The notes under the pieces: model-generated
The model's input: the letters and a program-made list of their open reading frames with translations, nothing else
The model's database searches: none
Told to the model about the DNA's origin: nothing
Part shown: positions 7,149-26,063 of the stretch, one piece after another
Layout of the letters: every line of letters starts with the position of its first letter
Position numbering within the stretch: position 1 is the first letter of the stretch
DNA from: Bacteroidales bacterium
GTDB taxonomy: Bacteria; Bacteroidota; Bacteroidia; Bacteroidales; UBA932
Direction of reading: 5' to 3'
Length of the DNA stretch: 41,883 nucleotides
Assembly: GCA_024398295.1 (NCBI GenBank)
Contig: JAKSJL010000009.1
Span: forward strand, 1 to 41,883
Translations under genes and position numbers: made by a program

Positions 7149-8936
7149 TTACTCTGCTACTGTAACAGGCGAGATACCGTTCTCGTTGAATGCCTCCACG
7201 CTGAAGAAGTATGGAGTATCTGCATTCAGGCAGCGAAGGAGGAGCTCATTTTCTGAGTAAACCATCCAAGAGCTGTACATCTTGTCTGGAGCGATACCCC
7301 AGCGGACATTGTAGCCCTGAGCACCTGGTACCTCATCCCAGGTAAGCATGGCTTCCTTGCCATCTGCGCCCATCACGGCCTTGAAGCCAGTGACCGCAGA
7401 TGGAGCCTCGCCACTACCCTTTCCGAACACACGGATCTCGGAGATGGCAAGGCTCTCAGAAGGGACCTTAATATTTGAGTATCTAACAAAACGGGCTTTG
7501 CAAGGCTCTGAAAGCTGCATATACGCATTCGGAGCATCCACCTCAATCTTGCTTCTGTCCTCGAGGACCTTCCACTTCTCACCATCGAGTGATGCCTCGA
7601 TCACGAACTTGTGGCAAAGACCTGGGACACGGCCATAAAGTCCTGCGTAGTGGTCATAATAGTTTATCTGGATGGCATTCACGGTAGCCTCGTCCTCGAG
7701 GTCGATCATCACCCACTCTGCATCAGAGTTGGTCGCCGCGAGCCAATAGGTCTTGCAGTTCTCATCTGTGAGGTTCGAAGCATTGAAATCAGGAGAGGTC
7801 TGAGGCCTGTTCCATTCGTCGAAACCCTGAGCAAGCGCCGCATGGCCCTCCTGCTGGGAAGATACGGTCACCGGCTTGTGGTATGACAGCAGCATCCAGC
7901 CTGTGAATGCGCCCTTCTTATCCACCTCCGATGGTGCATAGTGAGGATAATCGCCGTAAGCATTGTCACCATACATGATGCCGTCCTCGTCGAAAAAAGC
8001 CGGGAGCATGCAGATCCTGCGCTCCCAGTTTACTGTAGCAGAAAGCGACATGGTACCGAAGTGCCACCATGAGCCATTCTCCATCTGGACGGTGCTGCCG
8101 TGGCCAGCTCCATTTATGAAGCCGCCTGGCTTGTAGAATACAGGATTATGCGCCTGATAGGTGTAAGGTCCAAGAGGAGAGTCAGCGACGTATACGCCAT
8201 CACCATAGACATTGAACTCAGTGCCAGGAGCGCCATACTGCATGTAATACTTGCCGTTGTGCTTGGTCATCCAAGCGCCTTCGATGTAGGCTCCGATGAT
8301 GGTGTCGCTGTGGTTCTCGCCAAATCTCTCCCAGCCGTGCCTGGTACTATCAGTATGGAAAAGAGGCACTGTAGGACCATCCACAAGGAACCTGTCGTTC
8401 ATGTTCAGTTTCTTTCCTCTGATAGGAAGGTCATTTGAAGAGCCCCAGAACATGTATGCCTGATCATCATCATCAATGAACAGGTCTGGATCCTGAAGAT
8501 CGGTAAGGATGGCAGGGATAGGGGTCCACTTGCCCTTGATAGGGTCGTCGGTGTACATCACGCTCATGTTTCCAGATGGGTCTCCGGTCACATATAGAAG
8601 CGAATCCTTGTAGTTATGGGCCGCAGGAGCATTGCATCCCTGAGGATACCATGTGCTGTTTGACTCCAGGAACTCCCAGTTCAGCAGGTCCTTCGAGTGC
8701 CAATAACCCAGAGACCTGGTGACGAACATGTAGTACTCGCCCTTGAAGCAAACCACTGCTGGGTCGGCACCTGAACGATACGAGAGATTCTGTGCCGAAT
8801 TGTAGACCATATACGTATAGTCTATGTCGATAGGGTTACAGTATGTGGCCGGACCCTTCTGCACCTTCTCCGCACATGAGGCGAGAAGGGCGAGGGAAAG
8901 GGCTGCAAGTGTAATTCTTCTTATTACTTGTTCCAT
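7149..8936 (-). CDS. GH43 lipoprotein with discoidin-like and Fn3 domains
   Basis: This is a 595-residue lipoprotein (lipobox LLASC, C21). The five-bladed GH43 propeller shows the expected acidic triad: D58 in SGADPAV, D149 in LQDPDLF, and E219 in YIEGAWM. The catalytic part spans about 30-360. A F5/8 type C-like domain follows at about 385-505 (with EWVMIDLEDEATVNAIQINY), and then a short fibronectin type III domain to the end. GH43 enzymes are inverting arabinosidases, xylosidases or galactosidases; the specificity cannot be assigned here. The ATG at 8936 overlaps the end of the upstream GH3 gene by 13 bases, implying translational coupling. It is the last gene of the leftward operon and ends at the hairpin 7086-7113. 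Confidence 0.85.
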   Translation of the reverse strand: MEQVIRRITLAALSLALLASCAEKVQKGPATYCNPIDIDYTYMVYNSAQNLSYRSGADPAVVCFKGEYYMFVTRSLGYWHSKDLLNWEFLESNSTWYPQGCNAPAAHNYKDSLLYVTGDPSGNMSVMYTDDPIKGKWTPIPAILTDLQDPDLFIDDDDQAYMFWGSSNDLPIRGKKLNMNDRFLVDGPTVPLFHTDSTRHGWERFGENHSDTIIGAYIEGAWMTKHNGKYYMQYGAPGTEFNVYGDGVYVADSPLGPYTYQAHNPVFYKPGGFINGAGHGSTVQMENGSWWHFGTMSLSATVNWERRICMLPAFFDEDGIMYGDNAYGDYPHYAPSEVDKKGAFTGWMLLSYHKPVTVSSQQEGHAALAQGFDEWNRPQTSPDFNASNLTDENCKTYWLAATNSDAEWVMIDLEDEATVNAIQINYYDHYAGLYGRVPGLCHKFVIEASLDGEKWKVLEDRSKIEVDAPNAYMQLSEPCKARFVRYSNIKVPSESLAISEIRVFGKGSGEAPSAVTGFKAVMGADGKEAMLTWDEVPGAQGYNVRWGIAPDKMYSSWMVYSENELLLRCLNADTPYFFSVEAFNENGISPVTVAE

Positions 8937-11188
8937 ACAAACGATGCTTTCTGGGTGTCTCTGGAGTTGGTTCCAATGAAGATGTTGAAATCTCCAGGCT
9001 CCCATACCTTCTGGAGCTGAGAGTTATAGAACTTGAGAGCCTCAGTGGTGACATCGAAGGTCACTGTGGCACTCTCGCCAGCGGCAAGGGTAAGCTTCTG
9101 GAAGCCCTTGAGCTCCTTCACTGGGCGTGAGATGGAAGCAGCAGGGTCACCGATGTACATCTGGACAGTCTCCTCACCAGCGCATGAACCAGTGTTCTTG
9201 ATGACTACAGAAGCCTTGATGACATCCTTGTCGCCAGAAGCGGAAGACTTGTCAAGAGCGATCTCCGAGTACTCGAAGGTAGTGTATGAGAGACCATATC
9301 CGAATGGATAGAGTGGCTCATTAGGACAGTCAAGATACTTGGATGTATAGTGGTCCTCTGGGTTCTGAGGACGACCAGTGTTCAGGTAATTGTAGTAGAT
9401 AGGAATCTGACCCATTCTGAGAGGGAACGTGGTGGTGAGCTTTCCGCTAGGGTTCACATCGCCGAAGATCACGTCTGCAAGTCCACGGGCAGCCTCACTT
9501 CCACCATGCCATGCCTCCACGAGTGTAGGACAGTTCTGATCCTCCCACTCAAGAACGAGAGGGCGGCCTGAGCAGATCACGAATACCACTGGCTTGCCGG
9601 TAGCGAGGAGAGCCGAGATAAGCTCCTTCTGAGCGGCAGGGAGGGTGATGTCAGCCTTGCTGCAAGCCTCACCCGACCAGCTACGAGGCTCGCCGAGCAC
9701 AGCGATTACCTTGTCTGCCTGGCGTGCAGCAGCCACAGCCTCGCGAACGAGGCGGGTATTCTGTGCAGGGTCGCAGACGACGCCGCCCTCCTGAGCGAGC
9801 TTCTCCTCGTTTGTGAAGTTGCATCCCTGTGCGTAGATAACCTTTCCAGAAGCGCCAAGAGCCTCCTTTACGGCATCCACCACTGTAGCAGACTTCTGGT
9901 CGCAGGAACCACTCCACATACCGAGAAGATTCTGTGTATCCTGAGCCAATGGGCCGATGACAGCCACGGTTCCGCTCTTCTGGAGAGGGAGTACGTTCTT
10001 GTCGTTCTTGAGAAGGACAATGGCTTTGGCAGCAGCCTCACGTGCGAGCGCAAGGCCCTCCTCTGTGAGAGTATTCGCCTCCGCACGCTCCTTGTTCACA
10101 TATTTATATGGGTCATCGAAGAGACCAAGCTTGTACTTTGCCTCAAGGATACGGCGACACGCTGTATCAATGTCCTTCTGCGACACCTTGCCCTCTGCAA
10201 GAGACTCCTTGAGGGTCTTCAGGAAGCCGAGAGTCATCATGTCCATGTCAAGGCCAGCCTTGAGCGCCTGCGCAGACACTTCCTTGGTGTCACCGAGGCC
10301 GTGGTTTGTCATCTCTCCGATGGCGTCGTAGTCAGAAACCACGAAACCATTGAAACCCCACTCGTCCCTGAGGAGTTCTGTCATGAGCCAATGATTTCCC
10401 GATGCAGGGATGCCCTCGACAAGGTTGAATGAAGACATTCCCGAGCCGGCACCTGCCTGGAAAGCGGACTTGTAAGGCTCGAGGTAGCTGTTGTACATCT
10501 GAAGCTTGCTCATGTCGACGGTGTTATAGTCGCGACCCGCCTCTGCAGCGCCGTAGAGCGCGAAATGCTTCACGCAAGCCATGATGGTGCTTTCGTCAGA
10601 GAGGTCATCGCCCTGATAGCCGCGCACCATGGCGGCAGCCATGAGCGAACCGAGGTATGGGTCCTCACCGCTTCCCTCAGCGATACGGCCCCAGCGCGCG
10701 TCACGGGCGATATCGACCATTGGGCTGTAAGTCCAGCTGATACCATTGGACGAAGCCTCTACCGCAGCCACCCTGGCGGTCTTCTCCACAAGGGCAGGAT
10801 CCCAGGTGCAGGAGAGGCCGAGAGGAATAGGGAATACAGTATAGAAACCGTGGATGACATCCACGCCGCAAAGCATAGGGATGCCCATCCTGGACTCCTC
10901 CACCGCGAGAGCCTGGAGTCGCCTGAGCTCATCGAGGTCAGTCCAGCCTGTGGCTGTGAGGTAACCCATCTTGATGAGATCGTCGATGCCCTGCGCTCCA
11001 CTGAGCACTCCAGGGACATCTCCACCAGAAAGGTTAAGCTGTCCGATTTTCTCCTCGACAGTCATCTTCGACATGAGGTCGTCGATGAACTTGTCCATCT
11101 TCTTGTCCCCTGAGGACTTGTCTGAGCCACACGACATCATAGTGAATGCTGCGGCACACAATGCAAGAGTAGTTATTATCTTCTTCAT
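8924..11188 (-). CDS. GH3 beta-glucosidase lipoprotein
   Basis: This 754-residue enzyme of the BglX type starts at MKKIITTL, which gives a lipoprotein-like signal (MMSC, C20). An in-frame ATG at 11218 would add ten residues that spoil the signal and would overlap the upstream gene. The GH3 barrel carries KHFALYGAAEAGRDYN and the nucleophile in GFVVSDYDAI (D286). The second domain and the C-terminal fibronectin-type domain (ending near NSRDTQKASFVWNK) are complete. Family knowledge: GH3 beta-glucosidases beside GH144 genes in gut Bacteroidales (for example BT_3567 of Bacteroides thetaiotaomicron) hydrolyse beta-1,2-gluco-oligosaccharides. That is the inferred role. The start lies four bases after the stop of the upstream GH144 gene. 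Confidence 0.9.
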   Translation of the reverse strand: MKKIITTLALCAAAFTMMSCGSDKSSGDKKMDKFIDDLMSKMTVEEKIGQLNLSGGDVPGVLSGAQGIDDLIKMGYLTATGWTDLDELRRLQALAVEESRMGIPMLCGVDVIHGFYTVFPIPLGLSCTWDPALVEKTARVAAVEASSNGISWTYSPMVDIARDARWGRIAEGSGEDPYLGSLMAAAMVRGYQGDDLSDESTIMACVKHFALYGAAEAGRDYNTVDMSKLQMYNSYLEPYKSAFQAGAGSGMSSFNLVEGIPASGNHWLMTELLRDEWGFNGFVVSDYDAIGEMTNHGLGDTKEVSAQALKAGLDMDMMTLGFLKTLKESLAEGKVSQKDIDTACRRILEAKYKLGLFDDPYKYVNKERAEANTLTEEGLALAREAAAKAIVLLKNDKNVLPLQKSGTVAVIGPLAQDTQNLLGMWSGSCDQKSATVVDAVKEALGASGKVIYAQGCNFTNEEKLAQEGGVVCDPAQNTRLVREAVAAARQADKVIAVLGEPRSWSGEACSKADITLPAAQKELISALLATGKPVVFVICSGRPLVLEWEDQNCPTLVEAWHGGSEAARGLADVIFGDVNPSGKLTTTFPLRMGQIPIYYNYLNTGRPQNPEDHYTSKYLDCPNEPLYPFGYGLSYTTFEYSEIALDKSSASGDKDVIKASVVIKNTGSCAGEETVQMYIGDPAASISRPVKELKGFQKLTLAAGESATVTFDVTTEALKFYNSQLQKVWEPGDFNIFIGTNSRDTQKASFVWNK

Positions 11189-11192
11189 GATA

Positions 11193-12542
11193 TCAGTTGT
11201 TTTCAATGGTGAAGCCAAGTTTAGCGAGTCCTTCTTGAACCTCTGGACAGCTCATGAAAAGCTTCCACAGAAGACCAGACCTATGATTTTCTATCATCGG
11301 AGTGATAGTGCACTGGTCGATGGCAAGATACCTGCGAGGGCACCAATCCTTGGCCTGGCAGAATGCATCATAGAAGCCGTAGTCGCCCCAGATGAGGTCC
11401 TTCATGTCATAATAGAAGTGCCTCATCGCAGCCAGGGACTCCTCTGGAGTGTATGGGAAGGAACTGAGAGCAGCTGTCGGGGTGATCACGCCCAGATCCT
11501 CGCCGAAAGGCCTATGCGCAGCATAGCCTTCAGGTGAATAGCTTGCCGTGAGACCCCAGCAGTTAGGGCCGTAGCCGTAATGCTTGAGAGGGTTCGCGAC
11601 GCAGTACGCATAGTGTATCTTCGAGTGGTTTGTCACCAATGGCCAATACTCCACATACCTGTCCTTCAAGCCCTTTGGACACAGTCCAATGTACGAGTAG
11701 TGCGACCAGAAGAGTGGGCCGGAATAGTCCTCGGCACCATTGTACTTCAGCAGCAGTGGCAAGCCATACGCCTCCTTGCCAGAGACGAAGCTGCCGCCAC
11801 GGGCCCAGCACTTGTGGTAAGCCTCGGGGTTGATAGGATGGGTTGGGGACGATGCTCCGAGGATATAGGTGATGAGACACTCATTGTAGCCCTCGATGGC
11901 GAAGTTTATCTGCCACTCGTATTCTGGACTCCAGTGCCAGTAGAGCTTGTCGGTGGTACCACGCTGATACCAGTCCCACTCTACCGAGTGCCACAGTCTG
12001 TTGATGTCGGCAGCGAGCTCTCTCTCAGCCACGGTGTCCTGGTTCATATACTGCCTGGCACAGAGAAGGCCTTCCATGAGGAAGGAGGTCTCCACGAGGT
12101 CGCCTCCATTGTCCACCTTGCCGAATGGACGGACATGGCCAGTACCATCCTCTATCCAGTGAGGGAAAGCGCCATGGAAGGTGTCTGCAGTGGAAAGGAA
12201 ATCCACTATCTTGCGCAGACGTGCCACACCCTCCTCGCGGGTGATGTAACCCCTGTCCATTCCGGCAATGAGACCTGCAATACCAAATCCCGAACCACCT
12301 ACAGCGATGATATCGGCGTCGTTCTGTGGATAGTTTCCATCCATGTGTATGCGCTCAGGCGCCATGCCCGAATTTGGGCAGGCTCCCTCCCACATGTACA
12401 TGAGATGGGCCTTCTCCATCATGTCGATGAACTCCTCATCGGCAAGCTGCACTTCTGGTGCCACATTTTGCTTGCGCTCTCCACAAGCAGAGATGGCTAG
12501 TACGGCCAGCGAAATCGTTGCCGCCTTGATCCACTTATTCAT
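11193..12542 (-). CDS. GH144 family beta-1,2-glucan-active enzyme, lipoprotein
   Basis: This 449-residue lipoprotein (lipobox LAISAC, C20) is a single alpha/alpha-barrel of the PF10091/GH144 type. The acidic cluster DNGGDLVE places D144, D148 and E151, and E221 lies in EGYNECLITY. These match, in motif and spacing, the residues I recall as essential in the Chitinophaga arvensicola enzyme CpSGL (D135, D139, E142, E211). Known GH144 members are endo-beta-1,2-glucanases or sophorose-releasing exo-enzymes. Automatic annotation often calls the family 'glucoamylase', which is misleading. Its ATG shares one base with the stop of the upstream modular GH144 (TAATG). Endo versus exo action cannot be decided from the sequence. 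Confidence 0.87.
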   Translation of the reverse strand: MNKWIKAATISLAVLAISACGERKQNVAPEVQLADEEFIDMMEKAHLMYMWEGACPNSGMAPERIHMDGNYPQNDADIIAVGGSGFGIAGLIAGMDRGYITREEGVARLRKIVDFLSTADTFHGAFPHWIEDGTGHVRPFGKVDNGGDLVETSFLMEGLLCARQYMNQDTVAERELAADINRLWHSVEWDWYQRGTTDKLYWHWSPEYEWQINFAIEGYNECLITYILGASSPTHPINPEAYHKCWARGGSFVSGKEAYGLPLLLKYNGAEDYSGPLFWSHYSYIGLCPKGLKDRYVEYWPLVTNHSKIHYAYCVANPLKHYGYGPNCWGLTASYSPEGYAAHRPFGEDLGVITPTAALSSFPYTPEESLAAMRHFYYDMKDLIWGDYGFYDAFCQAKDWCPRRYLAIDQCTITPMIENHRSGLLWKLFMSCPEVQEGLAKLGFTIENN

Positions 12543-14692
12543 TATCTTACTGCTTCAAGTTTTCTTATCGCATTCTGGACATCCTTGTTCGACATGAAAA
12601 GGTTCCAGATGAAACCGCTGCGGTAGTTTTCTACCATCACGGTGATAGGGCCCTGGTTCAGACCCATGAAGATAGGAGCCACCCAGTTGATGCTTGGGTT
12701 GTAGGCATCGTAGAAGCCATACTCGCCCCAAAGGAAGTCACCGCAGTCGCGATAGAAGTGCTTGAATGCCCTCATCGACTCTTCAGGAGTGTATGGGAAT
12801 GATGCCAATGCTCCAGTAGGAGTAAGCTTGCCCTCATCCTGATGCTCTGCAGGCTCGCTGGCGCTGTAGCCCCAGTAGCCATCGCTCGCGGTCAGTCCCC
12901 ATGCATCCTCACCGTAGCCTGCGTAGCCCTTAGGGTTCTCCACACAGTAGCGGTAGTTGATGGTGGCAATGGCCTTGTTATTCTCAAAATAGTTCACGAA
13001 TCGGTCTGTGAGCGCGTGAGGGTCAAGGCCCATGAACGAGTAGTGGCAGAAGAAGAGAGGTCCACCGGTAGACTCGCCGATGCCAAGCTTCTGTCCGAAA
13101 TATGAATTGCCATTCACATATCTGTTTCCGTCCTTGCTGACAGCCCACTGGCGATAGTTCGCTGCCACATCGGTCTGGCTTGCCCAGCCAGAATAGTACA
13201 TGCTGGCAGGTACGGCATGGGTAGGCGAAGCGATGGCGAGGAAGTAGGTCACGAGAGTCTCGTTCCAGCCAATGAGCTTGTGGTTGATGACCCAGGCCTG
13301 GTCTGGTGACCAATGCCAGAAGAGGTAGTCGCTGTCCGGAGTCCTGCGATACCAGTCCCACTCGGTCTCCTCCCATATCTTCTGGATGCGTGAGCGTATG
13401 AGAGCCTCATCCTTTGAGTCTGCATCGAAGAACTGAAGGGCAGCAATGAGTCCCTCATAGAGGAATGACGTCTCCACGAGGTCACCACCATTGTCACGAT
13501 TTCCGAACCAAGCGATGGTCTCACCTGTCTTTCCGTTCATGAAATGAGGGTACACTCCATGGTAGCGCTGTGCCTTGGAGAGGTAGTCAGTGATCCTGAG
13601 GAATCTCTCCACGCCCTGCTCACGGGTGATGAAACCTCTATGGATACCGGTGAGGAGGGCCATCATGCCGAATCCTGACGCGCCAGCGGCGATCATGTCA
13701 GTGTGGCCAGGGATATCCTCCACAGCGAGACCGCTGTTTGGCTCACAACCCTCCCAGTAGTAGCGGAAGTTCGCAAGCTGGAGCATGTCCAGAAGCTCAT
13801 CGTCAGTCATGGCGCGAGTCTGTGCACCCACTGCCTTGGAGATGGTGCTCTCCGTACCATCGTAAGCGACAGCTGACACCTTGTAGCTGGCAGTAGTGCC
13901 AATGCTTCCGAGGAAGTCAGTGTATCTGTCTCTTCCCGCATCCCTGATAGCCACAGGCTCGTAATTCTTCGAATCAAAAGATCTATATATCTTATAGTAC
14001 TTTACAGCACTGTCCTCAGGACGGGTCCACCTGATATCAATGTGGCGCTCGAAGCCCACCGCCTCGACGATCTTTGGTGCATCCTTACGGAGCTTGAGAC
14101 CTCCACGTCCACCGAGAATCTCGATGTCATCGATGAAAACGGTGTGCTCCACATCGTCGGTGTCGTCGTTCTGTGAGAACGTAAGACCCACAATGCTCAT
14201 GAGCTGGCTTCCCTTCATGTCAGCAAGGCCGAAAGCAGCCATAGGGAAACGCAGTTCCTTCCAGCCATTTCCAAGCTCATATACTTGAGCTGCAGATACT
14301 TCCGCAGCACTACCTCTACGAGCCCCCTTGAAGACAAGAGATACACTCGCATACAGCTCGCCCTTCACGCTCATAGAGAGATACTCTGGATCATTGAAGT
14401 TCTCTACACCTCTGATCTCTGGATATTCGATGGTAGCGCGCCACATGCCGTTAGGGCTGGACTTATAGGTCAACTCGATAGAGTTGCCCGGAGTGACATA
14501 CTCCTCGCTGCGCACTACGACATGCTTCTGCATGTTCTTGACCCATGAATAACCTGAATACTCCACCTTTGAGTAAGGGTACATTCCTATTTTCATCGCA
14601 TTGCGAAAGAAAACAAAGTCAAAAGGGTTCTCCGCTGCAATGGATGAAAAGGAAATAAGAGCGGCACAAGCCGCGATGAACAGTTTTTTCAT
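12542..14692 (-). CDS. Modular GH144 with N-terminal beta-sandwich and Fn3
   Basis: This 716-residue exported protein has a signal peptide ending SSIAA-E and no lipobox, unlike the other two GH144 proteins. Residues about 22-195 look like a carbohydrate-binding beta-sandwich (ending HTVFIDDIEILGG). Residues about 205-292 are a fibronectin type III domain. The GH144 barrel spans about 295-716 with DNGGDLVE (D400, D404, E407) and GWNETLVTY (E477). Known characterised GH144 enzymes are mostly single-domain, so the extra modules may bind long polymer. It is second in the leftward operon, five bases after the GH3 stop, and overlaps the next gene by one base. Location is probably periplasmic. Confidence 0.85.
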   Translation of the reverse strand: MKKLFIAACAALISFSSIAAENPFDFVFFRNAMKIGMYPYSKVEYSGYSWVKNMQKHVVVRSEEYVTPGNSIELTYKSSPNGMWRATIEYPEIRGVENFNDPEYLSMSVKGELYASVSLVFKGARRGSAAEVSAAQVYELGNGWKELRFPMAAFGLADMKGSQLMSIVGLTFSQNDDTDDVEHTVFIDDIEILGGRGGLKLRKDAPKIVEAVGFERHIDIRWTRPEDSAVKYYKIYRSFDSKNYEPVAIRDAGRDRYTDFLGSIGTTASYKVSAVAYDGTESTISKAVGAQTRAMTDDELLDMLQLANFRYYWEGCEPNSGLAVEDIPGHTDMIAAGASGFGMMALLTGIHRGFITREQGVERFLRITDYLSKAQRYHGVYPHFMNGKTGETIAWFGNRDNGGDLVETSFLYEGLIAALQFFDADSKDEALIRSRIQKIWEETEWDWYRRTPDSDYLFWHWSPDQAWVINHKLIGWNETLVTYFLAIASPTHAVPASMYYSGWASQTDVAANYRQWAVSKDGNRYVNGNSYFGQKLGIGESTGGPLFFCHYSFMGLDPHALTDRFVNYFENNKAIATINYRYCVENPKGYAGYGEDAWGLTASDGYWGYSASEPAEHQDEGKLTPTGALASFPYTPEESMRAFKHFYRDCGDFLWGEYGFYDAYNPSINWVAPIFMGLNQGPITVMVENYRSGFIWNLFMSNKDVQNAIRKLEAVR

Positions 14693-14697
14693 GGTGA

Positions 14698-16992: not shown

Positions 16993-17023
16993 ATACTTTT
17001 GGTGATGTAAATCGTTTTCGAGA

Positions 17024-17031
17024 CAAATGTA
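17024..17031 (-). promoter_or_regulatory. -7 element of the leftward GH operon
   Basis: On the minus strand TACATTTG (17031-17024) matches TAnnTTTG and would start transcription about 27 bases before the GH3 ATG at 16992. No -33 element with the correct spacing is visible, which fits an activator-dependent promoter. Confidence 0.55.
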
Positions 17032-17078
17032 TCGATTTAAATATTCATTTTCTGCCAGTTATACCACTTCAAAAATTC

Positions 17079-17165
17079 GCACAAGTACCCATTTTTCAAA
17101 AAAGCGTAGTATTAGCGTAGTCCCCTTTTTCGCACAGAGTAGTTCTTGCGTAACCACTTTTTCGC
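17079..17165. promoter_or_regulatory. Repeated operator-like motifs between divergent operons
   Basis: Three related direct repeats lie here: GCACAAGTACCCATTTTTC (17079-17097), GCGTAGTCCCCTTTTTCGC (17115-17133) and GCGTAACCACTTTTTCGC (17148-17165). The last two start 33 bases apart, about three helical turns. An additional half-copy GCGTAGT (17104-17110) precedes the second by 11 bases. The third copy covers the -33 position of the susC promoter, the usual place for an activator. The likely ligand is the LuxR-type regulator encoded at 1948-4617, though this is inference. The whole intergenic stretch 16993-17254 holds two promoters, these repeats and a short leader. Confidence 0.6.
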
Positions 17166-17192
17166 CAGAATCCACAAAACGATTTAACTTTG
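17161..17192 (+). promoter_or_regulatory. Promoter of the susC operon
   Basis: The -7 element TAACTTTG (17185-17192) is a full match. TTCG (17161-17164) sits exactly 20 bases upstream as a degenerate -33 element and lies within the last operator-like repeat. Transcription should begin near 17197, giving a leader of about 58 bases before the SusC start. Confidence 0.65.
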
Positions 17193-17196
17193 CGCC

Positions 17197-17232
17197 ATGA
17201 AAATTTCCTTGAAGATAGGAAAAAACACATAA
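17197..17232 (+). other. Possible 11-codon leader ORF upstream of susC
   Basis: An ATG at 17197, at or next to the expected transcription start, opens an 11-codon frame (MKISLKIGKNT, then TAA). The same RNA can form a small hairpin from TTTCCT (17204-17209) and AGGAAA (17217-17222). It could be chance; there is no ribosome binding site because the ATG is at the predicted 5' end. Confidence 0.2.
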
Positions 17233-17254
17233 TAACATTTTTATCTAAAAACAC

Positions 17255-20200
17255 ATGAAAACAAAACTGATTTTTTGCCTCTGTTTGCTTCTGAGCGCTG
17301 CTACAGCATTCGCACAGAACATCACTGTCTCAGGTACAGTGACAGAGCAGGTCTCAGGTGAACCTGCACTTGGTGTCAGCATCGTTGTCAAGGGCAACGC
17401 TACTACTGGTACCATCGCAGACGCACTTGGTAACTACAGCATCTCAGTCCCAGCCAACAGCACTCTCGTTTTCAGTGCCATCGGCATGAAGACTCAGGAG
17501 GTCGCAGTTAATGGTCGCACCAGCATCGACGTCCAGATGGTCGAGGATGCTGAGCTCCTTAACGAGATCATCGTCATCGGTTATGGTACTGCCAAGAGCA
17601 AGGACCTCACTGGTGCCATTTCTTCTGTGAAGGCAGATGAGATCATCTCTACCCCTGTTTCCAGCCCTATGGGTGCCCTCCAGGGCAAGGTTGCCGGTGT
17701 ACAGATCCTCAACAGTGCAAATCCAGGAGCATCTCCAGTGGTTCGCGTACGTGGTGTCGGTTCATTCGACTCTTCATACCAGGGACCTCTCTACGTTGTA
17801 GATGGTATGTTCTTCGATAACATTGACTTCCTCGACAGCAGCAACATCGAGAGCCTCACCGTCCTCAAGGATGCGTCTTCAGCAGCCATCTACGGTGTAC
17901 GCGCAGCAAACGGTGTCATCCTCGTCACCACCAAGAACGGTGTGAAGGGCCAGGCTAAGGTTACCTACGATGGTTACTACGGTATCCAGCAGGCTAGCAA
18001 CCTCCTCAAGCTCGCCAACTCAGCAGAGTACGCATCGCTCATGAAGGAGTTCGGTGACCTCACCGCAGTTGAGCTCTCTATCAAGAACTGGGGCGGCAGC
18101 AACGGCGTGCCTACTACCGACACTGACTGGTACAAGGCTCTCCTCAAAACCGGTACTATCACAAGCCACAGCGTCAATGTATCTGGTACTACTGACAAGG
18201 CCTCTTACGTTCTCGGTGTAAGCTACTTCACCAACGACGGTATCAGCAAGGGAGACAACAACTATGAGCGTTTTAACATCATCAGCAAGGGTGACTACAC
18301 TCCTTTCAGCTGGCTCAAGGCTGGTGCAAACATCACCATCTCAAACGCTACCAAGAAGAATGGTTCACTCACCGCATTCCGTGAGGCATTCCTCCTCCCT
18401 TCTTTCATCCCTGTATACGATGAGAAGAATACCGATGCTTATCCTACCAAGTATGGTTCAACCCTCGCAGTAGGTCTCACCAGTGGTTACTTCGCTAACC
18501 CTGTGGCCAGAGCAGAGATGAACAACAGTAGAAACAACTACCTCCGCATCCTTCCTTCCCTCTACACAGAGCTCTCATTCATTCCTGAGAAACTCAAGTA
18601 CAAGTTCGCTGTTGCACAGGAGTACAACCTCGGTCAGAGCAAGAACTACACTCCTGTTTATTATGTATCTGGTAACCAGATGTCAAATACCAACAGCCTG
18701 AGCAAGCAGATCGATTATAACTACAACACTATCATCGATAACACCCTCACCTACACCGACAGATTCGGAAAGCACGGTCTCACCGCCATGCTCGGTCAGT
18801 CAGTTCGTTATGAGAACTACAGATTCCTCCAGTCAAGCACCAAGAAGCTCGCTGGTGACGGTTCAGACCAGTATCACTACATCAGCCTCGGCGACAAGGG
18901 TGAGTCTGAGACAACAGACGGTGGTTTCAGCTACAGAGGTGTATCTTTCTTCGGTCGTGCTAGCTACGACTACGATGGAAAGTATCTCGCATCTGCAACC
19001 ATGAGAATCGACGGTAGCTCTAAGTTCCAGGAGAAGTGGGGCTACTTCCCATCAGTAGGTCTCGGCTGGGTTATCTCAGAGGAGGACTTCATGAAGAACC
19101 AGAACGTATTCGAGTACTTGAAGCTCCGTGGTAGCTGGGGTCTCCTCGGTAACGACAAGGAGCCTGCAAGCGACGGTTTCGCTGGTCTTGCCACCAATTA
19201 TTACAACATGAACAACCAGACCCTCGGCGGACTTCTTCTCGAGAACAAGTTCAGCTGGCTCAAGTGGGAGGTTGTACGTGAGATCAACGCAGGTCTTTCA
19301 TTCACCTCACTCGGTGGAAGACTCACTGGAGAACTTGACTACTACAACCGTCTTACAAACAACGCTGTGGTCCTCAACACCATCCCTGTGACAATGGAGA
19401 CTGTACTCGCAAACTCTGGTAAGATTTCCAACAGCGGTATCGAGCTTCAGCTCGGTTGGCATGACAAGGTAGGTGAGCTCGGCTACTCTATCGACGTCAA
19501 CGCAACCACCCTCCACAACGAGGTAAAGGCTATCCAGGGCGAGGATCTCGACTACATTCTCACTGGTTCCGCAGAGTTCCGTCAGATCATGAAGGTCGGC
19601 CAGCCTATGAACAGCTTCTACGGCTACAAGACCAATGGTATCTGGGCAAGCGAGGCTGAGATCAATGCAGCAGGCGATTTCGCGAAGCAGCAGGGCGCTC
19701 AGGTAGGTTACCTTAAGTATGTAGACGCAAATGGCGACGGTAACTTCGACTCAGAGGACCGTACCTTCCTCGGTGCTCCATATCCTAAGTTCACCTATGG
19801 TGGCAACCTCGGCTTCACTTACAAGAAGTGGGATCTCGGCTTGACTTTCTACGGCGTTTCTGGCATCCAGGTTTGCAACGCAAAGATGGCTATGAGATAC
19901 TGGGCAGGTGCCTCAATGAACTTCACCAAGGATTTCGCGGCTGATCACTTCACCGCATCCAACACCGGCAGCAAGAACCCTTCAGTAGCTGGTCTGCTTG
20001 CTGCAGCAAATGGTCAGATCAACGACTACTTCATCGAGGACGCAAGCTACTTCCAGCTCCAGAACATCCAGCTCGGTTACAACATGAGCAAGCTCTGGAA
20101 CAAGGTTGATGCTAGAGTATACGTATCTGCACAGAACCCTCTTACCTTCTTCAAGTATCAGGGATACACCCCAGAAATCGTAGATCCTACCGGACTTGAT

Positions 20201-20257
20201 AGAGAGACCTACCCAATGGCACGTACATTCACCCTTGGTGTCAAGATCACATACTAA
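17255..20257 (+). CDS. SusC/RagA-family TonB-dependent outer-membrane transporter
   Basis: This 1000-residue transporter has a signal peptide (ending ATAFA-Q) and an N-terminal carboxypeptidase-regulatory-like domain (about 24-100, VSGTVTEQVSGEPALGVSIV). A TonB-box-like stretch NEIIVIGYGT follows, then the plug domain with VRVRGVGSF and PLYVVDGMF, and a 22-strand barrel ending in an aromatic residue (LGVKITY). It imports oligosaccharides through the outer membrane with its SusD partner, powered by TonB. It begins the rightward operon and is followed 18 bases later by susD. Context with GH144 and GH3 genes suggests beta-1,2-gluco-oligosaccharides as cargo. The codon choice is strongly biased toward a few C-ending codons, as expected for high expression. 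Confidence 0.95.
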   Translation: MKTKLIFCLCLLLSAATAFAQNITVSGTVTEQVSGEPALGVSIVVKGNATTGTIADALGNYSISVPANSTLVFSAIGMKTQEVAVNGRTSIDVQMVEDAELLNEIIVIGYGTAKSKDLTGAISSVKADEIISTPVSSPMGALQGKVAGVQILNSANPGASPVVRVRGVGSFDSSYQGPLYVVDGMFFDNIDFLDSSNIESLTVLKDASSAAIYGVRAANGVILVTTKNGVKGQAKVTYDGYYGIQQASNLLKLANSAEYASLMKEFGDLTAVELSIKNWGGSNGVPTTDTDWYKALLKTGTITSHSVNVSGTTDKASYVLGVSYFTNDGISKGDNNYERFNIISKGDYTPFSWLKAGANITISNATKKNGSLTAFREAFLLPSFIPVYDEKNTDAYPTKYGSTLAVGLTSGYFANPVARAEMNNSRNNYLRILPSLYTELSFIPEKLKYKFAVAQEYNLGQSKNYTPVYYVSGNQMSNTNSLSKQIDYNYNTIIDNTLTYTDRFGKHGLTAMLGQSVRYENYRFLQSSTKKLAGDGSDQYHYISLGDKGESETTDGGFSYRGVSFFGRASYDYDGKYLASATMRIDGSSKFQEKWGYFPSVGLGWVISEEDFMKNQNVFEYLKLRGSWGLLGNDKEPASDGFAGLATNYYNMNNQTLGGLLLENKFSWLKWEVVREINAGLSFTSLGGRLTGELDYYNRLTNNAVVLNTIPVTMETVLANSGKISNSGIELQLGWHDKVGELGYSIDVNATTLHNEVKAIQGEDLDYILTGSAEFRQIMKVGQPMNSFYGYKTNGIWASEAEINAAGDFAKQQGAQVGYLKYVDANGDGNFDSEDRTFLGAPYPKFTYGGNLGFTYKKWDLGLTFYGVSGIQVCNAKMAMRYWAGASMNFTKDFAADHFTASNTGSKNPSVAGLLAAANGQINDYFIEDASYFQLQNIQLGYNMSKLWNKVDARVYVSAQNPLTFFKYQGYTPEIVDPTGLDRETYPMARTFTLGVKITY

Positions 20258-20261
20258 TAAT

Positions 20262-20267
20262 AGGAGG
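20262..20267 (+). promoter_or_regulatory. Strong ribosome binding site before susD
   Basis: AGGAGG lies eight bases before the ATG at 20276. Canonical Shine-Dalgarno sites are uncommon in Bacteroidota, so this one likely secures high SusD synthesis within the operon. Confidence 0.6.
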
Positions 20268-20275
20268 ATATAGAT

Positions 20276-21751: not shown

Positions 21752-21780
21752 TCTATACTCAACAGTTAATACTATCACTG

Positions 21781-21813
21781 ATAGCCTGGCAGGGCTGGAC
21801 CCTACCAGGCTAT
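21781..21813 (+). terminator. Intra-operon stem-loop after susD
   Basis: ATAGCCTGG (21781-21789) pairs with CCAGGCTAT (21805-21813), with an inner AGGG/CCCT extension separated by single mismatched bases and a five-base loop. There is no proper U-run after it. It is therefore more likely a partial terminator or an RNA-stabilising 3' end for the susC-susD message than a full stop. Confidence 0.55.
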
Positions 21814-21830
21814 TATTAACTAAATAGCCA

Positions 21831-23243
21831 ATGAAAAGATTGATATTTTTCCTCAGCATGGTACTTGTGCTGGCTTCGTGCAGCCCTAAGACCACTGACA
21901 AGCACTTCATTCCTATCAAGCCTGTAGGCATCATCCAAGGACTCTCTGACGACGAGCTCCTTGAGACCGTACAACGCCAAACCTTCAGATTCTTCTGGGA
22001 GTTCGGACATCCTGTATCAGGCCTCGCACGCGAGCGTACAAACACCGTCAAGGGAGCAACATACTGGGACTATATCAATGAAGCATACGACATCCCTAAC
22101 TTCTCCGAGCACACCTACGGACCTGAGTCCTGCGCCATCGGAGGTAGCGGATTCGGTATCATGGCACTCTGCGTAGCCGTAGAGCGTGGATGGATCACCA
22201 AGGAAGCAGCGCTGGAGCGCCTCCACAAGATAGTGGAGTTCCTTATGCAGGCCGAGACCTTCCACGGGGTGTTCCCTCACTTCATGAACGGCGACACGGG
22301 CAAGCCTGTGACTTTCGGTCGCCTCGATGAAGGTGGCGACCTGGTCGAAACCTCATATCTTTTCATGGGTCTTCTCACTGCCCGCGCATATTTCAATGGC
22401 GACAGCCCACTCGAGGTGTATCTCCGCGACAAGATCACCCATATGTGGGAGACTGTAAACTGGGCGTGGTACGAGAAGGATGGTCTTCTCTACTGGCACT
22501 GGTGCCCAAATCAGGGCTACGACATGAACTTCCCTATCGTGGGATGGAACGAGTGCCTCATCACATACATTGTCGCTGCATCATCACCTACTCACCCTAT
22601 CTCCAAGGATGTCTACGAGAGCTGCTGGAAGATGTCTCCATCATACAGAAACACCACCGAGCGCTATGGCTACACCATTCCTCTGGGTGACTGGGGCGAG
22701 GCGCTCGCAGGACCATTGTTCTTCGAGCAGTACACATTCCAGGGCATTGACCCCAATGGTCTCTATGACGAGGAGGGCGTGCACTACTACGAGCAGGGGC
22801 GCCTCCACACACTCAGCCAGCGCGCATACTGCATCGCCAACCCTAAGGGATACAAGGGATACGGCGAGAACTGCTGGGGACTCACCGCTGGCGACAGCAA
22901 CAAAGGCTACGTCGCACACGACCCTAACTGCGACTACGGCGTGATCCAGCCTACGGCAGCATTGTCATCCATGCCATACACACCGGTTGAGACAATGGAA
23001 GTGATAAGACACTTCTACTACGACCTCGGCGACCAGATCTGGGGCGAATACGGCTTCGTCGACGGCTTCAACCCTGACACCGGATGGGCATCGAACACAT
23101 GGCTTGCCATCGACGAGGGCCCTATCATCAACATGATTGAGAACTACCGCACCGGCATGCTTTGGAAGATATTCATGAACCTTCCTGAGATCCAGAACGG
23201 ACTCGCAAGACTTGGATTCACACATCCATATTCAGAAAAATAA
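21831..23243 (+). CDS. GH144 family beta-1,2-glucan-active lipoprotein
   Basis: This 470-residue lipoprotein (lipobox LVLASC, C17) is a single GH144 barrel. The acidic cluster appears as LDEGGDLVE (D166, D170, E173), with Glu replacing the Asn seen in the other two copies, and E241 lies in GWNECLITY. It sits directly behind susC-susD, the usual position for the surface enzyme that first cuts the polymer, so an endo-acting outer-membrane role is likely but unproven. It has an insertion (about 68-98) between the first helix and the GGSGFG motif that the other two copies lack or shorten. The stop overlaps the next gene by one base (TAATG). Confidence 0.87.
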   Translation: MKRLIFFLSMVLVLASCSPKTTDKHFIPIKPVGIIQGLSDDELLETVQRQTFRFFWEFGHPVSGLARERTNTVKGATYWDYINEAYDIPNFSEHTYGPESCAIGGSGFGIMALCVAVERGWITKEAALERLHKIVEFLMQAETFHGVFPHFMNGDTGKPVTFGRLDEGGDLVETSYLFMGLLTARAYFNGDSPLEVYLRDKITHMWETVNWAWYEKDGLLYWHWCPNQGYDMNFPIVGWNECLITYIVAASSPTHPISKDVYESCWKMSPSYRNTTERYGYTIPLGDWGEALAGPLFFEQYTFQGIDPNGLYDEEGVHYYEQGRLHTLSQRAYCIANPKGYKGYGENCWGLTAGDSNKGYVAHDPNCDYGVIQPTAALSSMPYTPVETMEVIRHFYYDLGDQIWGEYGFVDGFNPDTGWASNTWLAIDEGPIINMIENYRTGMLWKIFMNLPEIQNGLARLGFTHPYSEK

Positions 23244-25219
23244 TGAAGAGAATTCTTCAGACTATCATTCTATTTGCTATCACCGTGAGTTGCGCCCCTA
23301 AGGCAGAGCTCACGGTGTTGCGTAAGACAAGCTCGCCCGACGAAAGGCTCAGCATGACCATCAGTTCCACCGAAGGCAAGCTGTCTTATTGCGTAGAATA
23401 CGACGGAAAGACTGTCGTCAGCCCTTCGGAACTGGGACTTGAACTTGACGAGGGATATTTCGGCGATCAGGTGAAGATAGTGAAGTCAAGGACACGCACT
23501 GTCAAGGACTCCTACGAACTTCCTGTCGGAAAATGCAGCCATGTAGACGCTGTATGCAAGGAGTCCCGAATTACACTCTCTGACGAGATAACGCTGGACC
23601 TCGTGGTACGCGTATATGACGACGGAGCAGCATTCAGGTACGATATTCCAGACCAGGAAACCATACATAAGCTTAACCTGCGTGCTGAAAGAATGGACAT
23701 GCGACTTGGCCCTGACTCAGAAGCCACAGTGCTGCCACTAAAGGACTTTCATAATTCTCACGAAGGGAATTATCTGATATCCAATGTAAAAGAACTACCT
23801 GAGGACAGTCTTTTCGACCTCCCTGCGACTTTCAAGACAGGCGATGACATATTCCTTTCTTTCACAGAGGCTGATGTACGCGACTACGCAGGAATGTATC
23901 TGGTAAAGTCAGAAGACGCGCTTACCAGCAAGCTCTCGCCAAGGTTAGACCAGCCTGAGTACTGCGTGATTTCCGACCTTCCACACCATAGTCCATGGAG
24001 GGTATTCTCTGTCAGCGACAGGATAGGAGCCATCATGGAGTCAAACATACTCACAAACCTCGCGGAGCCTTGCCGCATCGGCGACACCTCCTGGCTGAAG
24101 CCGGGCAAGACCACCTTCAACTGGTGGTGCGCGACCCAGGTGCCGGACTCAGTGCATGCCGGAAACAACTTTGAGACAAGCAGATACTATATAGATTTCG
24201 CAACAGAATTCGGGCTTGAGTACCACTCAGTCTTCGGCTATGGCGACGAACCTTGGTACGTGGACAGTGTCATGGGATTCAGCGAATGCGGCCCGGACGC
24301 AGACCTCACCAGGACGGTTCCGGAGCTGGATTTCCCTGCCGTGTGCTCATACGCCGCATCGAAGGGTGTCGACATCCATGTCTGGACAAACTGGAAAGCA
24401 TTGTATCAGAATATCGATGCGAACTTCGACAAGTTCAACGAGTGGGGCGTGAAAGGCATGATGGTGGACTTCATGGACAGAGACGACCAGCAGATGATAC
24501 AGATTCAGGAGGAGATATTGAAAAAGGCCGCCGAGCACCACCTGTTCGTGCAGTTCCACGGCTCGTCGAAGCCTTCCGGCCTCTCCAGGACCTATCCAAA
24601 TGAGTTCACGCGCGAGGGGACATTGAACTACGAAGTGTACAAATGGCACAGCGACAGGCTGGGCGCCGACCACGACATCACCATGCCTTTCACCAGAGTG
24701 CTCGCAGGCCCAGCCGACTACCATCTCGGCGGCTTCAGGGCCATGCCCGCGCAGTCGCATGTGGCGGACTACTTCGAGCCGAAGGTCACAAACACCAGGT
24801 GCCACATGCTCGCCATGTACGTGGTGCTGGAGAGTTACCTTCATATGGTCGCCGACTATCCCGAGAATTACAGAGGCGAGCCGGGAGCGGAATTCCTTTC
24901 CGCGGTTCCGACCACCTGGGACGAGACGAGGGTGCTTGACGCGAAGCTCAATGAGTACGAGGTCATCGGCCGAAGAAGCGGCGACGACTGGTACATGGGA
25001 GCCATTTCGAACCACGAAGGCAGGAGCATTGGTGTAAAGCTGGACTTCCTCGGCAACGGCGAATACGAGCTCACATGGTTTATGGATGGCGACAATGTCG
25101 CGGAGGATCCCAATCATCTCATGAAGATGGTCACGACCGTCACGCAGAACGACACCATCACGCTCAACATCGCCCCTGACGGAGGCGGTGCAGCATTGAT
25201 TTTCAGAAAATTATCATAA
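23243..25219 (+). CDS. GH97 family retaining alpha-glycosidase
   Basis: This 658-residue exported protein has a lipoprotein-like signal (TVSC, C17). It shows the GH97 architecture: N-terminal beta-super-sandwich, then a barrel with WTNWKALYQN, GMMVDFMDRDDQ and NEFTREGTLNYE. D409 in VDFMDRDD occupies the nucleophile position of the retaining GH97 group, known for alpha-galactosidase activity in B. thetaiotaomicron. The inverting SusB alpha-glucosidase type lacks that Asp. E458 is a candidate acid/base. It is translationally coupled to the upstream GH144. Together with GH31 and GH43 it implies that the target glycan carries alpha-linked side groups, or that the locus serves more than one glycan. 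Confidence 0.87.
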   Translation: MKRILQTIILFAITVSCAPKAELTVLRKTSSPDERLSMTISSTEGKLSYCVEYDGKTVVSPSELGLELDEGYFGDQVKIVKSRTRTVKDSYELPVGKCSHVDAVCKESRITLSDEITLDLVVRVYDDGAAFRYDIPDQETIHKLNLRAERMDMRLGPDSEATVLPLKDFHNSHEGNYLISNVKELPEDSLFDLPATFKTGDDIFLSFTEADVRDYAGMYLVKSEDALTSKLSPRLDQPEYCVISDLPHHSPWRVFSVSDRIGAIMESNILTNLAEPCRIGDTSWLKPGKTTFNWWCATQVPDSVHAGNNFETSRYYIDFATEFGLEYHSVFGYGDEPWYVDSVMGFSECGPDADLTRTVPELDFPAVCSYAASKGVDIHVWTNWKALYQNIDANFDKFNEWGVKGMMVDFMDRDDQQMIQIQEEILKKAAEHHLFVQFHGSSKPSGLSRTYPNEFTREGTLNYEVYKWHSDRLGADHDITMPFTRVLAGPADYHLGGFRAMPAQSHVADYFEPKVTNTRCHMLAMYVVLESYLHMVADYPENYRGEPGAEFLSAVPTTWDETRVLDAKLNEYEVIGRRSGDDWYMGAISNHEGRSIGVKLDFLGNGEYELTWFMDGDNVAEDPNHLMKMVTTVTQNDTITLNIAPDGGGAALIFRKLS

Positions 25220-25229
25220 AGTAAAGAAT

Positions 25230-26063
25230 ATGAGACGCTATTTTCACTTACTTGCAGTGATCGCAGTTCTTCTCACTGCAGCAGGCTGCAGCCAGAAAAA
25301 AGAGACCCTCAAGGTCATGTCCTACAATATCCGTCTGGGCATTGCCGATGACGGCGACAACTCGTGGGATTTCCGCAAGCCAGCCACCATCGAGATGCTG
25401 GAGACCCTCAATCCCGACATCTTCGGTGTGCAGGAAGCATACAACTATCAGCTCAGCTACATCACCGACAACTGTCCGCAGTACAGCTGCTTCGGAGTCG
25501 GCAGGGATGACGGTTCCGACGAGGGCGAGCACATGTCCATCTTCTATGACAACACCAAATTCGAGTGTCTGGAATGGGGAAACTATTGGCTTTCAGAGAC
25601 TCCCGAAGTGCCATCATTCGGCTGGGACGCAGCCTGCAGGCGCACCGCCACCTGGGCGCTGCTGAAGAACAAGCAGACCGGCAGCGAATTCTTCTTCGTG
25701 AACACCCACCTCGACCACATAGGCGTACAGGCCAGGATCAATGGCCTAGCCCTCGTGGTGGACAAGATAGCCGACATGAATCCGAACGGCAATCCAATGA
25801 TTCTCACCGGAGACTTCAACGTGGAGCCTGACGACATTTGCCTCGTGGACCTGAACACCAAGATGAGCAGTGCCCGAGCCACAGCCGAGGTCAGCGACAC
25901 CAAGCCATCCTTCAACGGCTGGGGCGAGGCGAGCGAAACCATCGACTACATCTACTACTCAGGCTTCAGCTGCTGTAAGACATTCCGCGTAGTGGACGAG
26001 TCTTTCGCCGACAAGCCATACATCTCTGACCACTACCCAGTCATCGCCGAGATAGAGTTCTAA
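25230..26063 (+). CDS. EEP-family (endonuclease/exonuclease/phosphatase) lipoprotein
   Basis: This 277-residue lipoprotein (lipobox TAAGC, C20) has all the catalytic motifs of the DNase I-like fold: MSYNIRLG (N33), FGVQEA (E69), NTHLDHIG (H160), LTGDFNVEP (D195, N197), ETIDYIYYSG (D239) and ISDHYPV (D267, H268). The family hydrolyses phosphodiester or phosphomonoester bonds in nucleic acids, phosphoinositides or sphingomyelin. As an exported lipoprotein at the end of a sugar operon, ten bases after GH97, it probably acts on a phosphate substituent of the glycan. Its stop codon overlaps that of the convergent phosphoesterase gene. Substrate assignment is inference. Confidence 0.85.
   Translation: MRRYFHLLAVIAVLLTAAGCSQKKETLKVMSYNIRLGIADDGDNSWDFRKPATIEMLETLNPDIFGVQEAYNYQLSYITDNCPQYSCFGVGRDDGSDEGEHMSIFYDNTKFECLEWGNYWLSETPEVPSFGWDAACRRTATWALLKNKQTGSEFFFVNTHLDHIGVQARINGLALVVDKIADMNPNGNPMILTGDFNVEPDDICLVDLNTKMSSARATAEVSDTKPSFNGWGEASETIDYIYYSGFSCCKTFRVVDESFADKPYISDHYPVIAEIEF

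What the first reader, a model, noticed from the sequence alone, without database searches (positions are those of the whole stretch)
7149..26063. Candidate beta-1,2-glucan utilisation locus with three GH144 and two GH3 enzymes
Three GH144 proteins (11193-12542, 12542-14692, 21831-23243) all keep the D-x3-D-x2-E cluster and the downstream (G)xNE glutamate that I recall as essential in CpSGL. They share divergent operons with two GH3 beta-glucosidases and one SusC/SusD pair. GH144 and neighbouring GH3 enzymes of gut Bacteroidales are known for beta-1,2-glucan. Having three GH144 copies suggests a surface endo-enzyme plus periplasmic sophorose-releasing or modular forms.
Basis: partly seen in the sequence, partly recalled or inferred. 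Interest (0 to 1): 0.7.

Follow-up and report, generated by a model that had tools for sequence, protein, structure and literature searches.

The report
Three-GH144 beta-1,2-glucan utilisation locus
A gut Bacteroidales bacterium, nearly identical to one found in horse faeces, carries a gene set that very probably imports bacterial beta-1,2-glucans and cuts them to glucose; loci of this kind are known, but one companion enzyme that often travels with them has an unknown target.

Summary
The three proteins are GH144-type (PF10091) and keep CpSGL's catalytic residues; they sit in two divergent operons with two BglX-type GH3s and a SusC/SusD pair. The beta-1,2-glucan reading is well supported by homology: 58% identity to endo-glucanase CpSGL, 52% full-length to BDI_3064 (exo, recalled), a GH3 close to 5xxl (recalled as BT_3567). 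No activity was tested.

Two corrections. The GH144s are three separate clades, not copies; the SusD-adjacent one belongs to a sub-branch whose other members are not first after SusD and mostly look secreted without a lipid anchor, so the surface enzyme is not identified. The locus also holds GH43, GH97, an EEP phosphoesterase and probably GH31.

The GH43 lineage is tied to GH144: in 295 other genomes, 55 of 58 with it have PF10091, against 49 of 237 without; 31 of 59 copies lie within 30 kb, 6 of 6 of the nearest. Same test: EEP 12 of 123, GH97 4 of 148 listed, GH31 0 of 94.

GH144 loci are already described as abundant, so this is a new member of a known kind; the GH43 link, unseen in my paper searches, is the new lead.

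The parts
1876..4617 (+). membrane-spanning regulator: sensor region, one transmembrane helix (by eye), LuxR-type HTH at the C-terminus; the TTG start is probably upstream of the true start
   Evidence: weak, below-cut-off Pfam matches to Reg_prop and GerE (none at E 0.001); sequence; related regulators in 30 of 79 GH144 loci at >100 bits
4627..7116 (+). GH31 alpha-glycosidase with DUF5110, possibly part of the locus
   Evidence: same family in 1 of 79 GH144 loci, L109, 48% identity; but 0 of 94 GH31 hits lie within 30 kb of PF10091 in 295 other genomes
7149..9005 (-). GH43 + F5/8C + fn3 lipoprotein, lineage without a close solved relative; likely true start near 8936
   Evidence: D81, D172, E242 conserved; linked to GH144; AF2 model pLDDT 88.6
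8924..11218 (-). GH3 beta-glucosidase, BglX type, lipoprotein; likely true start near 11188
   Evidence: NCBIfam BglX 849 bits, cut-off 666; best solved match 3u48 891 bits, 5xxl 827 bits
11193..12542 (-). GH144 clade A (CpSGL-like endo), lipoprotein
   Evidence: 58% identity to CpSGL 5gzh over 413 columns; clade with CpSGL
12542..14692 (-). GH144 clade E (BDI_3064-like exo), extra N-terminal region, no lipobox
   Evidence: 858 bits full length to 5z06; 52% identity; R94 and N679 shared by 14 of 14 exo-type sequences; 14-row clade, support 1.0
14698..16992 (-). GH3 beta-glucosidase, BglX type, lipoprotein (LCAC by eye)
   Evidence: NCBIfam BglX 927 bits; solved matches 9urf 1175, 5tf0 1156, 5xxl 1148 bits
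16993..17254 (.). divergent promoter region between the two operons
17024..17031 (-). Bacteroidales -7-like TAnnTTTG (TACATTTG) for the leftward operon
   Evidence: consensus recalled; 14 matches in window against 12.6 expected, so position, not number, is the argument
17185..17192 (+). Bacteroidales -7-like TAnnTTTG (TAACTTTG) for the rightward operon
   Evidence: consensus recalled
17255..20257 (+). SusC-type TonB-dependent transporter
   Evidence: TIGR04056 791 bits; scores above SusC2 in 63 of 63 GH144 loci with a SusC match over 400 bits
20276..21751 (+). SusD-type glycan-binding lipoprotein
   Evidence: PF07980 83 bits
21831..23243 (+). GH144 clade S, sub-branch not SusD-adjacent elsewhere; here with a lipobox (LASC)
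   Evidence: 494 bits to 4gl3; tree and N-termini
23243..25219 (+). GH97, retaining (alpha-galactosidase-like) type, lipoprotein
   Evidence: nearest solved 3a24/5e1q, aspartate of the VDFMD motif (recalled as nucleophile) present in the printed alignment; NCBIfam 453 bits, below cut-off 800
25230..26063 (+). EEP-family phosphoesterase lipoprotein, catalytic motifs present (by eye)
   Evidence: PF03372 45 bits; 165 bits to 3mpr and 164 to 4c1r 'mannosyl-6-phosphatase'; sequence

Best explanation
A polysaccharide utilisation locus for bacterial beta-1,2-glucans (linear or cyclic, possibly decorated) in a gut Bacteroidales bacterium. Inferred chain: SusC/SusD import the glucan; the two endo-type GH144s (clades A and S) cut it to sophoro-oligosaccharides and open rings; the exo-type GH144 (clade E) takes sophorose from non-reducing ends; the two GH3 enzymes finish to glucose. 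GH43 and EEP probably remove a decoration that would block these enzymes; GH97 and GH31 would act on an alpha-linked part. Shown here: gene content, operon layout, conserved catalytic residues, the three GH144 clades, the GH43-GH144 linkage. Inferred: substrate, cell location, order of action, the role of GH43, EEP, GH97 and GH31.
For: CpSGL D135, D139, E142, E211, F268 and Y330 are conserved in all three (residues per PMC12102758, passages and section 3.3). 58% identity to CpSGL and 52% full-length to BDI_3064, with R94, taken as its R93, conserved in 14 of 14 exo-type sequences; an exo-type GH144 releasing sophorose from the non-reducing end and a Bacteroides thetaiotaomicron beta-glucosidase preferring sophoro-oligosaccharides are reported in the passages of PMC11842490, which do not name the loci. 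GH3 at 14698-16992 scores 1148 bits to 5xxl, recalled as BT_3567. The window SusC scores above the neighbouring SusC2 in 63 of 63 GH144 loci. Similar sets elsewhere: L040 has three GH144 + EEP + GH43 + GH3 + GH97; L109 has three GH144 + GH31 + GH43 + GH3. GH43 linkage with the same test on EEP, GH97 and GH31.
Against: No activity data for any protein here. GH3 of the BglX type is broad and common, and two other solved GH3 chains score slightly above 5xxl. A GH144 locus exists whose partner enzyme is a beta-1,2-galactosidase that does not cut beta-1,2-glucooligosaccharides (PMC11739564). GH31 and GH97 are not tied to GH144 elsewhere (0 of 94 and 4 of 148 listed hits within 30 kb), so they may point to a mixed substrate or be recent additions. 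No clear surface enzyme and no LamG lipoprotein in the operon.
Confidence: 0.85

Rival explanations
1. The target is a different or mixed beta-1,2-linked glycan (for example containing galactose or arabinose), with beta-1,2-glucosyl stretches as only one part; GH97, GH43 and GH31 are then main-chain or branch enzymes.
For: GH97 is of the retaining alpha-galactosidase-like type; GH43 enzymes commonly act on furanose or xylose units (recalled; the nearest folds are mostly called xylosidases, arabinofuranosidases and arabinanases); a Bacteroides GH144 locus carries a beta-1,2-galactosidase.
Against: The GH144 enzymes characterised in the passages read act on beta-1,2-glucan; a GH3 near 5xxl; GH97 and GH31 not recurrent with GH144.
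Confidence: 0.12
2. The locus targets small intact glucans (cyclic or periplasmic glucans) taken up whole, with all cutting in the periplasm and no surface enzyme. This is compatible with the main reading.
For: No enzyme of the locus has more than one acidic residue in the six after its cysteine; where clade S has a lipobox (29 of 87) the mean is 2.07, against 0.57 in clade A (30 of 51); the window's S protein is in a sub-branch that is mostly not lipidated; LamG lipoprotein absent.
Against: Export signals in this lineage are untested; 58 of 87 clade S proteins show no lipobox by this crude pattern, so the surface role of S is itself uncertain; the window S protein sits next to SusD and has a lipobox, so it could be at the surface.
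Confidence: 0.35
3. GH43, EEP, GH97 and GH31 are chance neighbours of a plain beta-1,2-glucan operon.
For: GH31 0 of 94 and GH97 4 of 148 listed hits near PF10091 in other genomes; 28 of 59 GH43 hits are not within 30 kb of PF10091.
Against: GH43: 31 of 59 hits within 30 kb, 6 of 6 of the closest, and all 23 rows of its clade are in GH144 loci; EEP within 30 kb of GH43 in those same 6 of 6; GH97 and EEP lie in the window's SusC operon, GH43 in the GH144 operon.
Confidence: 0.15

Closest known systems
CpSGL (GH144 endo-beta-1,2-glucanase, PDB 5gzh)
   Same: 58% identity to 11193-12542, all six key residues, same clade
   Different: Chitinophaga enzyme; its own gene neighbourhood was not examined
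BDI_3064 (GH144, PDB 5z06; exo, sophorose-releasing activity recalled)
   Same: full-length match including the N-terminal region, the arginine taken as R93, and N at the D400 position
   Different: 52% identity
BT_3567 GH3 (PDB 5xxl; name and preference for sophoro-oligosaccharides recalled)
   Same: 1148-bit match of 14698-16992
   Different: two other solved GH3 chains score slightly higher; the window has a second, more distant GH3 (827 bits to the same chain)
GH144-containing PULs of Bacteroidetes (PMC6499787, passages seen)
   Same: SusC/SusD locus with GH144, described there as abundant and beta-1,2-glucan-targeting
   Different: the window has three GH144 clades plus GH43, EEP, GH97 and GH31, and lacks the LamG lipoprotein of 63 of 95 comparison loci; no sulfatase among the proteins scanned
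Bacteroides xylanisolvens Bxy_22780/22790 locus (PMC11739564, passages seen)
   Same: gut Bacteroidales PUL with GH144
   Different: partner is a GH35 beta-1,2-galactosidase

Membership tests
GH144 | PF10091 domain and CpSGL-type sequence | tested here: met
   230-262 bits, cut-off 27; 46-58% identity to CpSGL
GH144 | general acid E211 and candidate base E142, with D135 and D139; clan residues F268 and Y330 | tested here: met
   all present in all three (residues from PMC12102758)
GH144 | hydrolysis of beta-1,2-glucan | not testable with these tools
   needs assay
exo-type GH144 (EC 3.2.1.214, BDI_3064) | extra N-terminal domains and the arginine that blocks subsite -3 (recalled as R93; identified here as chain residue 76 by numbering) | tested here: met
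   full-length 858-bit match; R94 in window, 14 of 14; the identity of R93 is inferred
exo-type GH144 (EC 3.2.1.214, BDI_3064) | release of sophorose only | not testable with these tools
   needs assay
surface endo-GH144 | lipoprotein with acidic export tail, first GH144 after SusD | tested here: inconclusive
   21831-23243 follows SusD and has a lipobox but one acidic residue in +1..+6; 6 of 7 sub-branch relatives look plainly secreted (by eye)
beta-1,2-glucan PUL | SusC/SusD + GH144 + GH3 in operons | tested here: met
beta-1,2-glucan PUL | induction by and growth on beta-1,2-glucan | not testable with these tools
   needs culture or transfer to a laboratory strain
GH43 | five-bladed propeller with Asp base, Asp modulator, Glu acid (motif positions recalled) | tested here: met
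GH43 subfamily of known specificity | close match to a characterised member | tested here: inconclusive
   best solved sequence 42 bits; best fold by Foldseek BT_3662 5msx at 20% identity; CAZy subfamilies not available
GH97 alpha-galactosidase (NF053844) | curated cut-off 800 bits | tested here: not met
   453 bits; retaining-type aspartate present

The most novel reading that the evidence does not exclude
GH43 and EEP form a decoration-removing module for phosphate-bearing beta-1,2-glucans such as phosphoglycerol-substituted osmoregulated periplasmic glucans, while GH31 and GH97 open alpha-linked parts such as the alpha-1,6 closure of Xanthomonas-type cyclic glucan. The bacterium would then specialise in the osmoprotective glucans of other bacteria, taken up whole. 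The window-type GH43 clade would have a specificity new to the family.
Probability: 0.15. Interest if true: 0.65.

Novelty: new member of a known kind. Interest (0 to 1): 0.38.

Why it matters
Beta-1,2-glucans are made by bacteria as osmoprotectants and as symbiosis or virulence factors, and I found little on their use in the gut. The locus suggests that GH144 copies in one cluster are three old types that may differ in place of action, and it points to a GH43 lineage, repeatedly linked to GH144 across Bacteroidota, whose substrate is unknown. If that GH43 (and the EEP enzyme) removes a decoration, it would tell what natural beta-1,2-glucans look like in the gut and in soil.

Tried and rejected
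Rejected: that the three GH144s are recent duplicates (44-48% identity to each other; separate clades). Rejected as a general rule: that GH31 and GH97 belong to GH144 loci. Inconclusive: EEP as a fixed partner (12 of 123 hits near PF10091; EEP within 30 kb of GH43 in 10 of 59; in the fetched loci, whose flanks are only about 1.5 to 10 kb, 4 of 61 with GH43 show it). Considered: that unlinked GH43 copies (28 of 59) are only contig breaks; 6 of the 28 lie on a PF10091 contig but 298 kb to 2.4 Mb away and 3 are in genomes without PF10091, so part of the family really is elsewhere; 19 are on other contigs and cannot be judged. The AF2 model and fold searches of GH43 gave an ordinary GH43 fold and no hint of substrate. 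Papers: the searches were seen as listings; of PMC12102758 I read passages, the introduction and section 3.3; of PMC11739564, PMC11842490, PMC6499787, PMC10405439, PMC8072126 and PMC9122927 passages only. None of what I saw describes GH43 in beta-1,2-glucan loci. The CpSGL and BDI_3064 primary papers were not seen (not held). Recalled, from no call: BDI_3064 activity and R93, 5xxl = BT_3567, the Bacteroidales promoter and export-signal consensus, GH43 and GH97 catalytic positions.

Limits of counts: the 79 loci were fetched with the exo-type GH144 as query (the near-identical L032 left out), so they are biased to GH144; one search was drawn by GH43 and is the fair set for linkage. The Fisher test is not corrected for relatedness, and the chance figure there is a rough estimate. 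GH97 rows beyond the printed list were not used. One search used 87 of the 123 EEP hits by mistake; the other 36 were checked and none lies within 30 kb of a GH43 hit. In the tree, L131, L137, L141, L155 and L156 are missing because the script recovered no ORF over 350 aa at the hit; L138 was labelled unknown there and later placed its PF10091 genes on another contig. In one search the label 'first GH144 after SusD' was given only where SusD lay in the fetched stretch; CpSGL, BDI_3064 and the window proteins bear no label. Lipobox counts come from a simple pattern on ORFs started at the first methionine, without a control. The LamG family (63 loci) is a single-linkage cluster with one representative scanned; so are the sulfatase (24) and esterase (21) clusters.
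Full report
What is there. The window is one contig of a 2.09-Mb, 125-contig assembly, 76% complete. A public MAG contig, JAKSJM010000004.1, Bacteroidales bacterium from horse faeces, matches window 2545-24692 at 99.36% in one block. Every ORF named in the finding exists. From a 262-bp gap at 16993-17254 one operon runs left (GH3, GH144, GH144, GH3, GH43; genes overlap or are 5 nt apart) and one runs right (SusC, SusD, GH144, GH97, EEP phosphoesterase). The gap holds one correctly oriented TAnnTTTG element for each direction; the consensus is recalled, and the window as a whole has 14 matches against 12.6 expected. A regulator and a GH31 gene lie just outside the stated span and converge on the GH43.

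The GH144 proteins. On a joint alignment all three keep CpSGL D135, D139, E142, E211, F268 and Y330. E211 is held to be the general acid and E142 the best base candidate, and the residues at E211, F268 and Y330 define the clan (PMC12102758, passages and section 3.3). 11193-12542 is 58% identical to CpSGL. 12542-14692 matches BDI_3064 over its whole length (858 bits; 52% identity). BDI_3064 is recalled as an exo-enzyme that takes sophorose from non-reducing ends, with R93 closing the pocket; that GH144 holds such an exo-enzyme is stated in PMC11842490 (passages). The arginine of the solved chain that fits that numbering is R76 (inference), which aligns with window R94 and is arginine in 14 of 14 exo-type sequences; all 14 also have N in place of CpSGL D400, whereas the two other window proteins have D. 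21831-23243 is nearest to 4gl3 (494 bits).

Three types, not three copies. In a FastTree of 181 GH144 sequences the window proteins fall into clade A (52 rows with CpSGL, support 0.998; 2 of 52 labelled as the first GH144 after SusD), clade S (87 rows, support 0.913; 65 of 87 so labelled) and clade E (14 rows with BDI_3064, support 1.0; 2 of 14 so labelled). Stretches without SusD and the reference and window proteins bear no label. By a simple pattern, 30 of 51 A, 29 of 87 S and 1 of 13 E proteins have a lipobox; among those with one, the mean number of acidic residues in the next six is 0.57 in A and 2.07 in S. That would fit A facing the periplasm, S often at the surface and E soluble, but most S proteins show no lipobox by this pattern and there was no control. 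The window's own S protein lies in a sub-branch of 8; none of the other 7 is the first GH144 after SusD in its stretch (3 stretches show no SusD), 6 of 7 look plainly secreted by eye, and the window protein, although SusD-adjacent and with a lipobox, has one acidic residue there. The window operon also lacks the LamG/Big_5 lipoprotein cluster found in 63 of 95 comparison loci. So which enzyme, if any, works at the surface is open.

GH43 travels with GH144. Among 79 named loci fetched with the exo-type GH144, 30 carry a GH43 match above 100 bits. In a separate sample of 295 other genomes of the phylum, 58 have a GH43 match below E 1e-30 and 104 have PF10091; 55 of the 58 have both, against 49 of the 237 without GH43 (Fisher odds ratio 70, not corrected for relatedness). 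Of 59 GH43 hits, 31 lie within 30 kb of PF10091 on the same contig: 6 of 6 at 55% identity or more, 12 of 24 at 45-54%, 13 of 29 at 38-44%; a rough estimate for chance placement is 2%. The same test gives 12 of 123 for EEP, 4 of 148 listed hits for GH97 and 0 of 94 for GH31. Against a strict link: 28 of 59 GH43 hits are not near PF10091, and 3 of these are in genomes without any. In a tree of 57 GH43 rows the window protein lies in a 23-row clade with full support in which all 23 rows are in GH144 loci; most were fetched through GH144, but 5 were drawn by GH43 alone. The rest of the tree is mixed. In the 6 nearest genomes an EEP gene also lies within 30 kb of the GH43, and in five loci the two genes are at most about 100 bp apart (L040, L131, L132, G144, G349); over all 59 GH43 hits EEP is within 30 kb in 10.

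How it probably works. SusC/SusD bring the glucan in. Clade A and S enzymes cut chains and open rings, clade E strips sophorose, and the two GH3s release glucose. GH43 and EEP probably clear a decoration; GH97 and GH31 would handle alpha-linked units. Everything about substrate, place and order is inference from relatives. The main rivals are a mixed beta-1,2-linked glycan, as the Bacteroides xylanisolvens locus with a beta-1,2-galactosidase suggests (PMC11739564, passages), and uptake of small intact glucans without surface cutting, which is compatible with the main reading.

Known or new. GH144 loci are published as abundant in Bacteroidetes and assigned to beta-1,2-glucan (PMC6499787, passages), and three or more GH144 genes recur in 8 of the 12 named loci with a full-length exo enzyme. 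The locus is therefore a new member of a known kind. What I did not find in print, within the searches (listings, and passages of seven papers), is the GH43 lineage as a standing partner of GH144, or the three-clade division of GH144 by gene position and export signal.

Noticed in passing
window 27450-36771: A second SusC/SusD pair with two lipoprotein-like ORFs and a GH2 close to beta-galactosidase GalA (889.8 bits, cut-off 900), probably a separate locus; TAnnTTTG lies just upstream at 27421-27428.
   Followed up: no
window 26060-27235: Calcineurin-type phosphoesterase with PF16370 C-terminus, convergent with and overlapping the EEP gene by 4 nt; no match above 100 bits in the 79 GH144 loci, so not counted as part of the locus.
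   Followed up: partly
window 38199-39413: Membrane protein with an AraC-like C-terminal helix-turn-helix as read by eye from the sequence; not scanned.
   Followed up: no
L074 15829-17328 and relatives: A sulfatase cluster (representative with a CSPSR motif) occurs in 24 of 95 comparison loci, and an alpha/beta-hydrolase esterase cluster in 21, suggesting differently decorated glucans; neither is among the window proteins scanned.
   Followed up: partly
G250, G279, G309: Three genomes carry the GH43 family without any PF10091 gene, so part of the family serves another substrate.
   Followed up: no
12 named exo-type loci (L033-L043, L092), BDI_3064 and window 12542-14692: N replaces CpSGL D400 in all 14 exo-type GH144 sequences, a simple mark that may tell exo from endo members.
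   Followed up: partly
G001-G036: Within the genus, 6 of 36 other genomes have PF10091, each with two copies against three in the window's genome, so the locus is patchy in its own genus; many of these genomes are incomplete.
   Followed up: no
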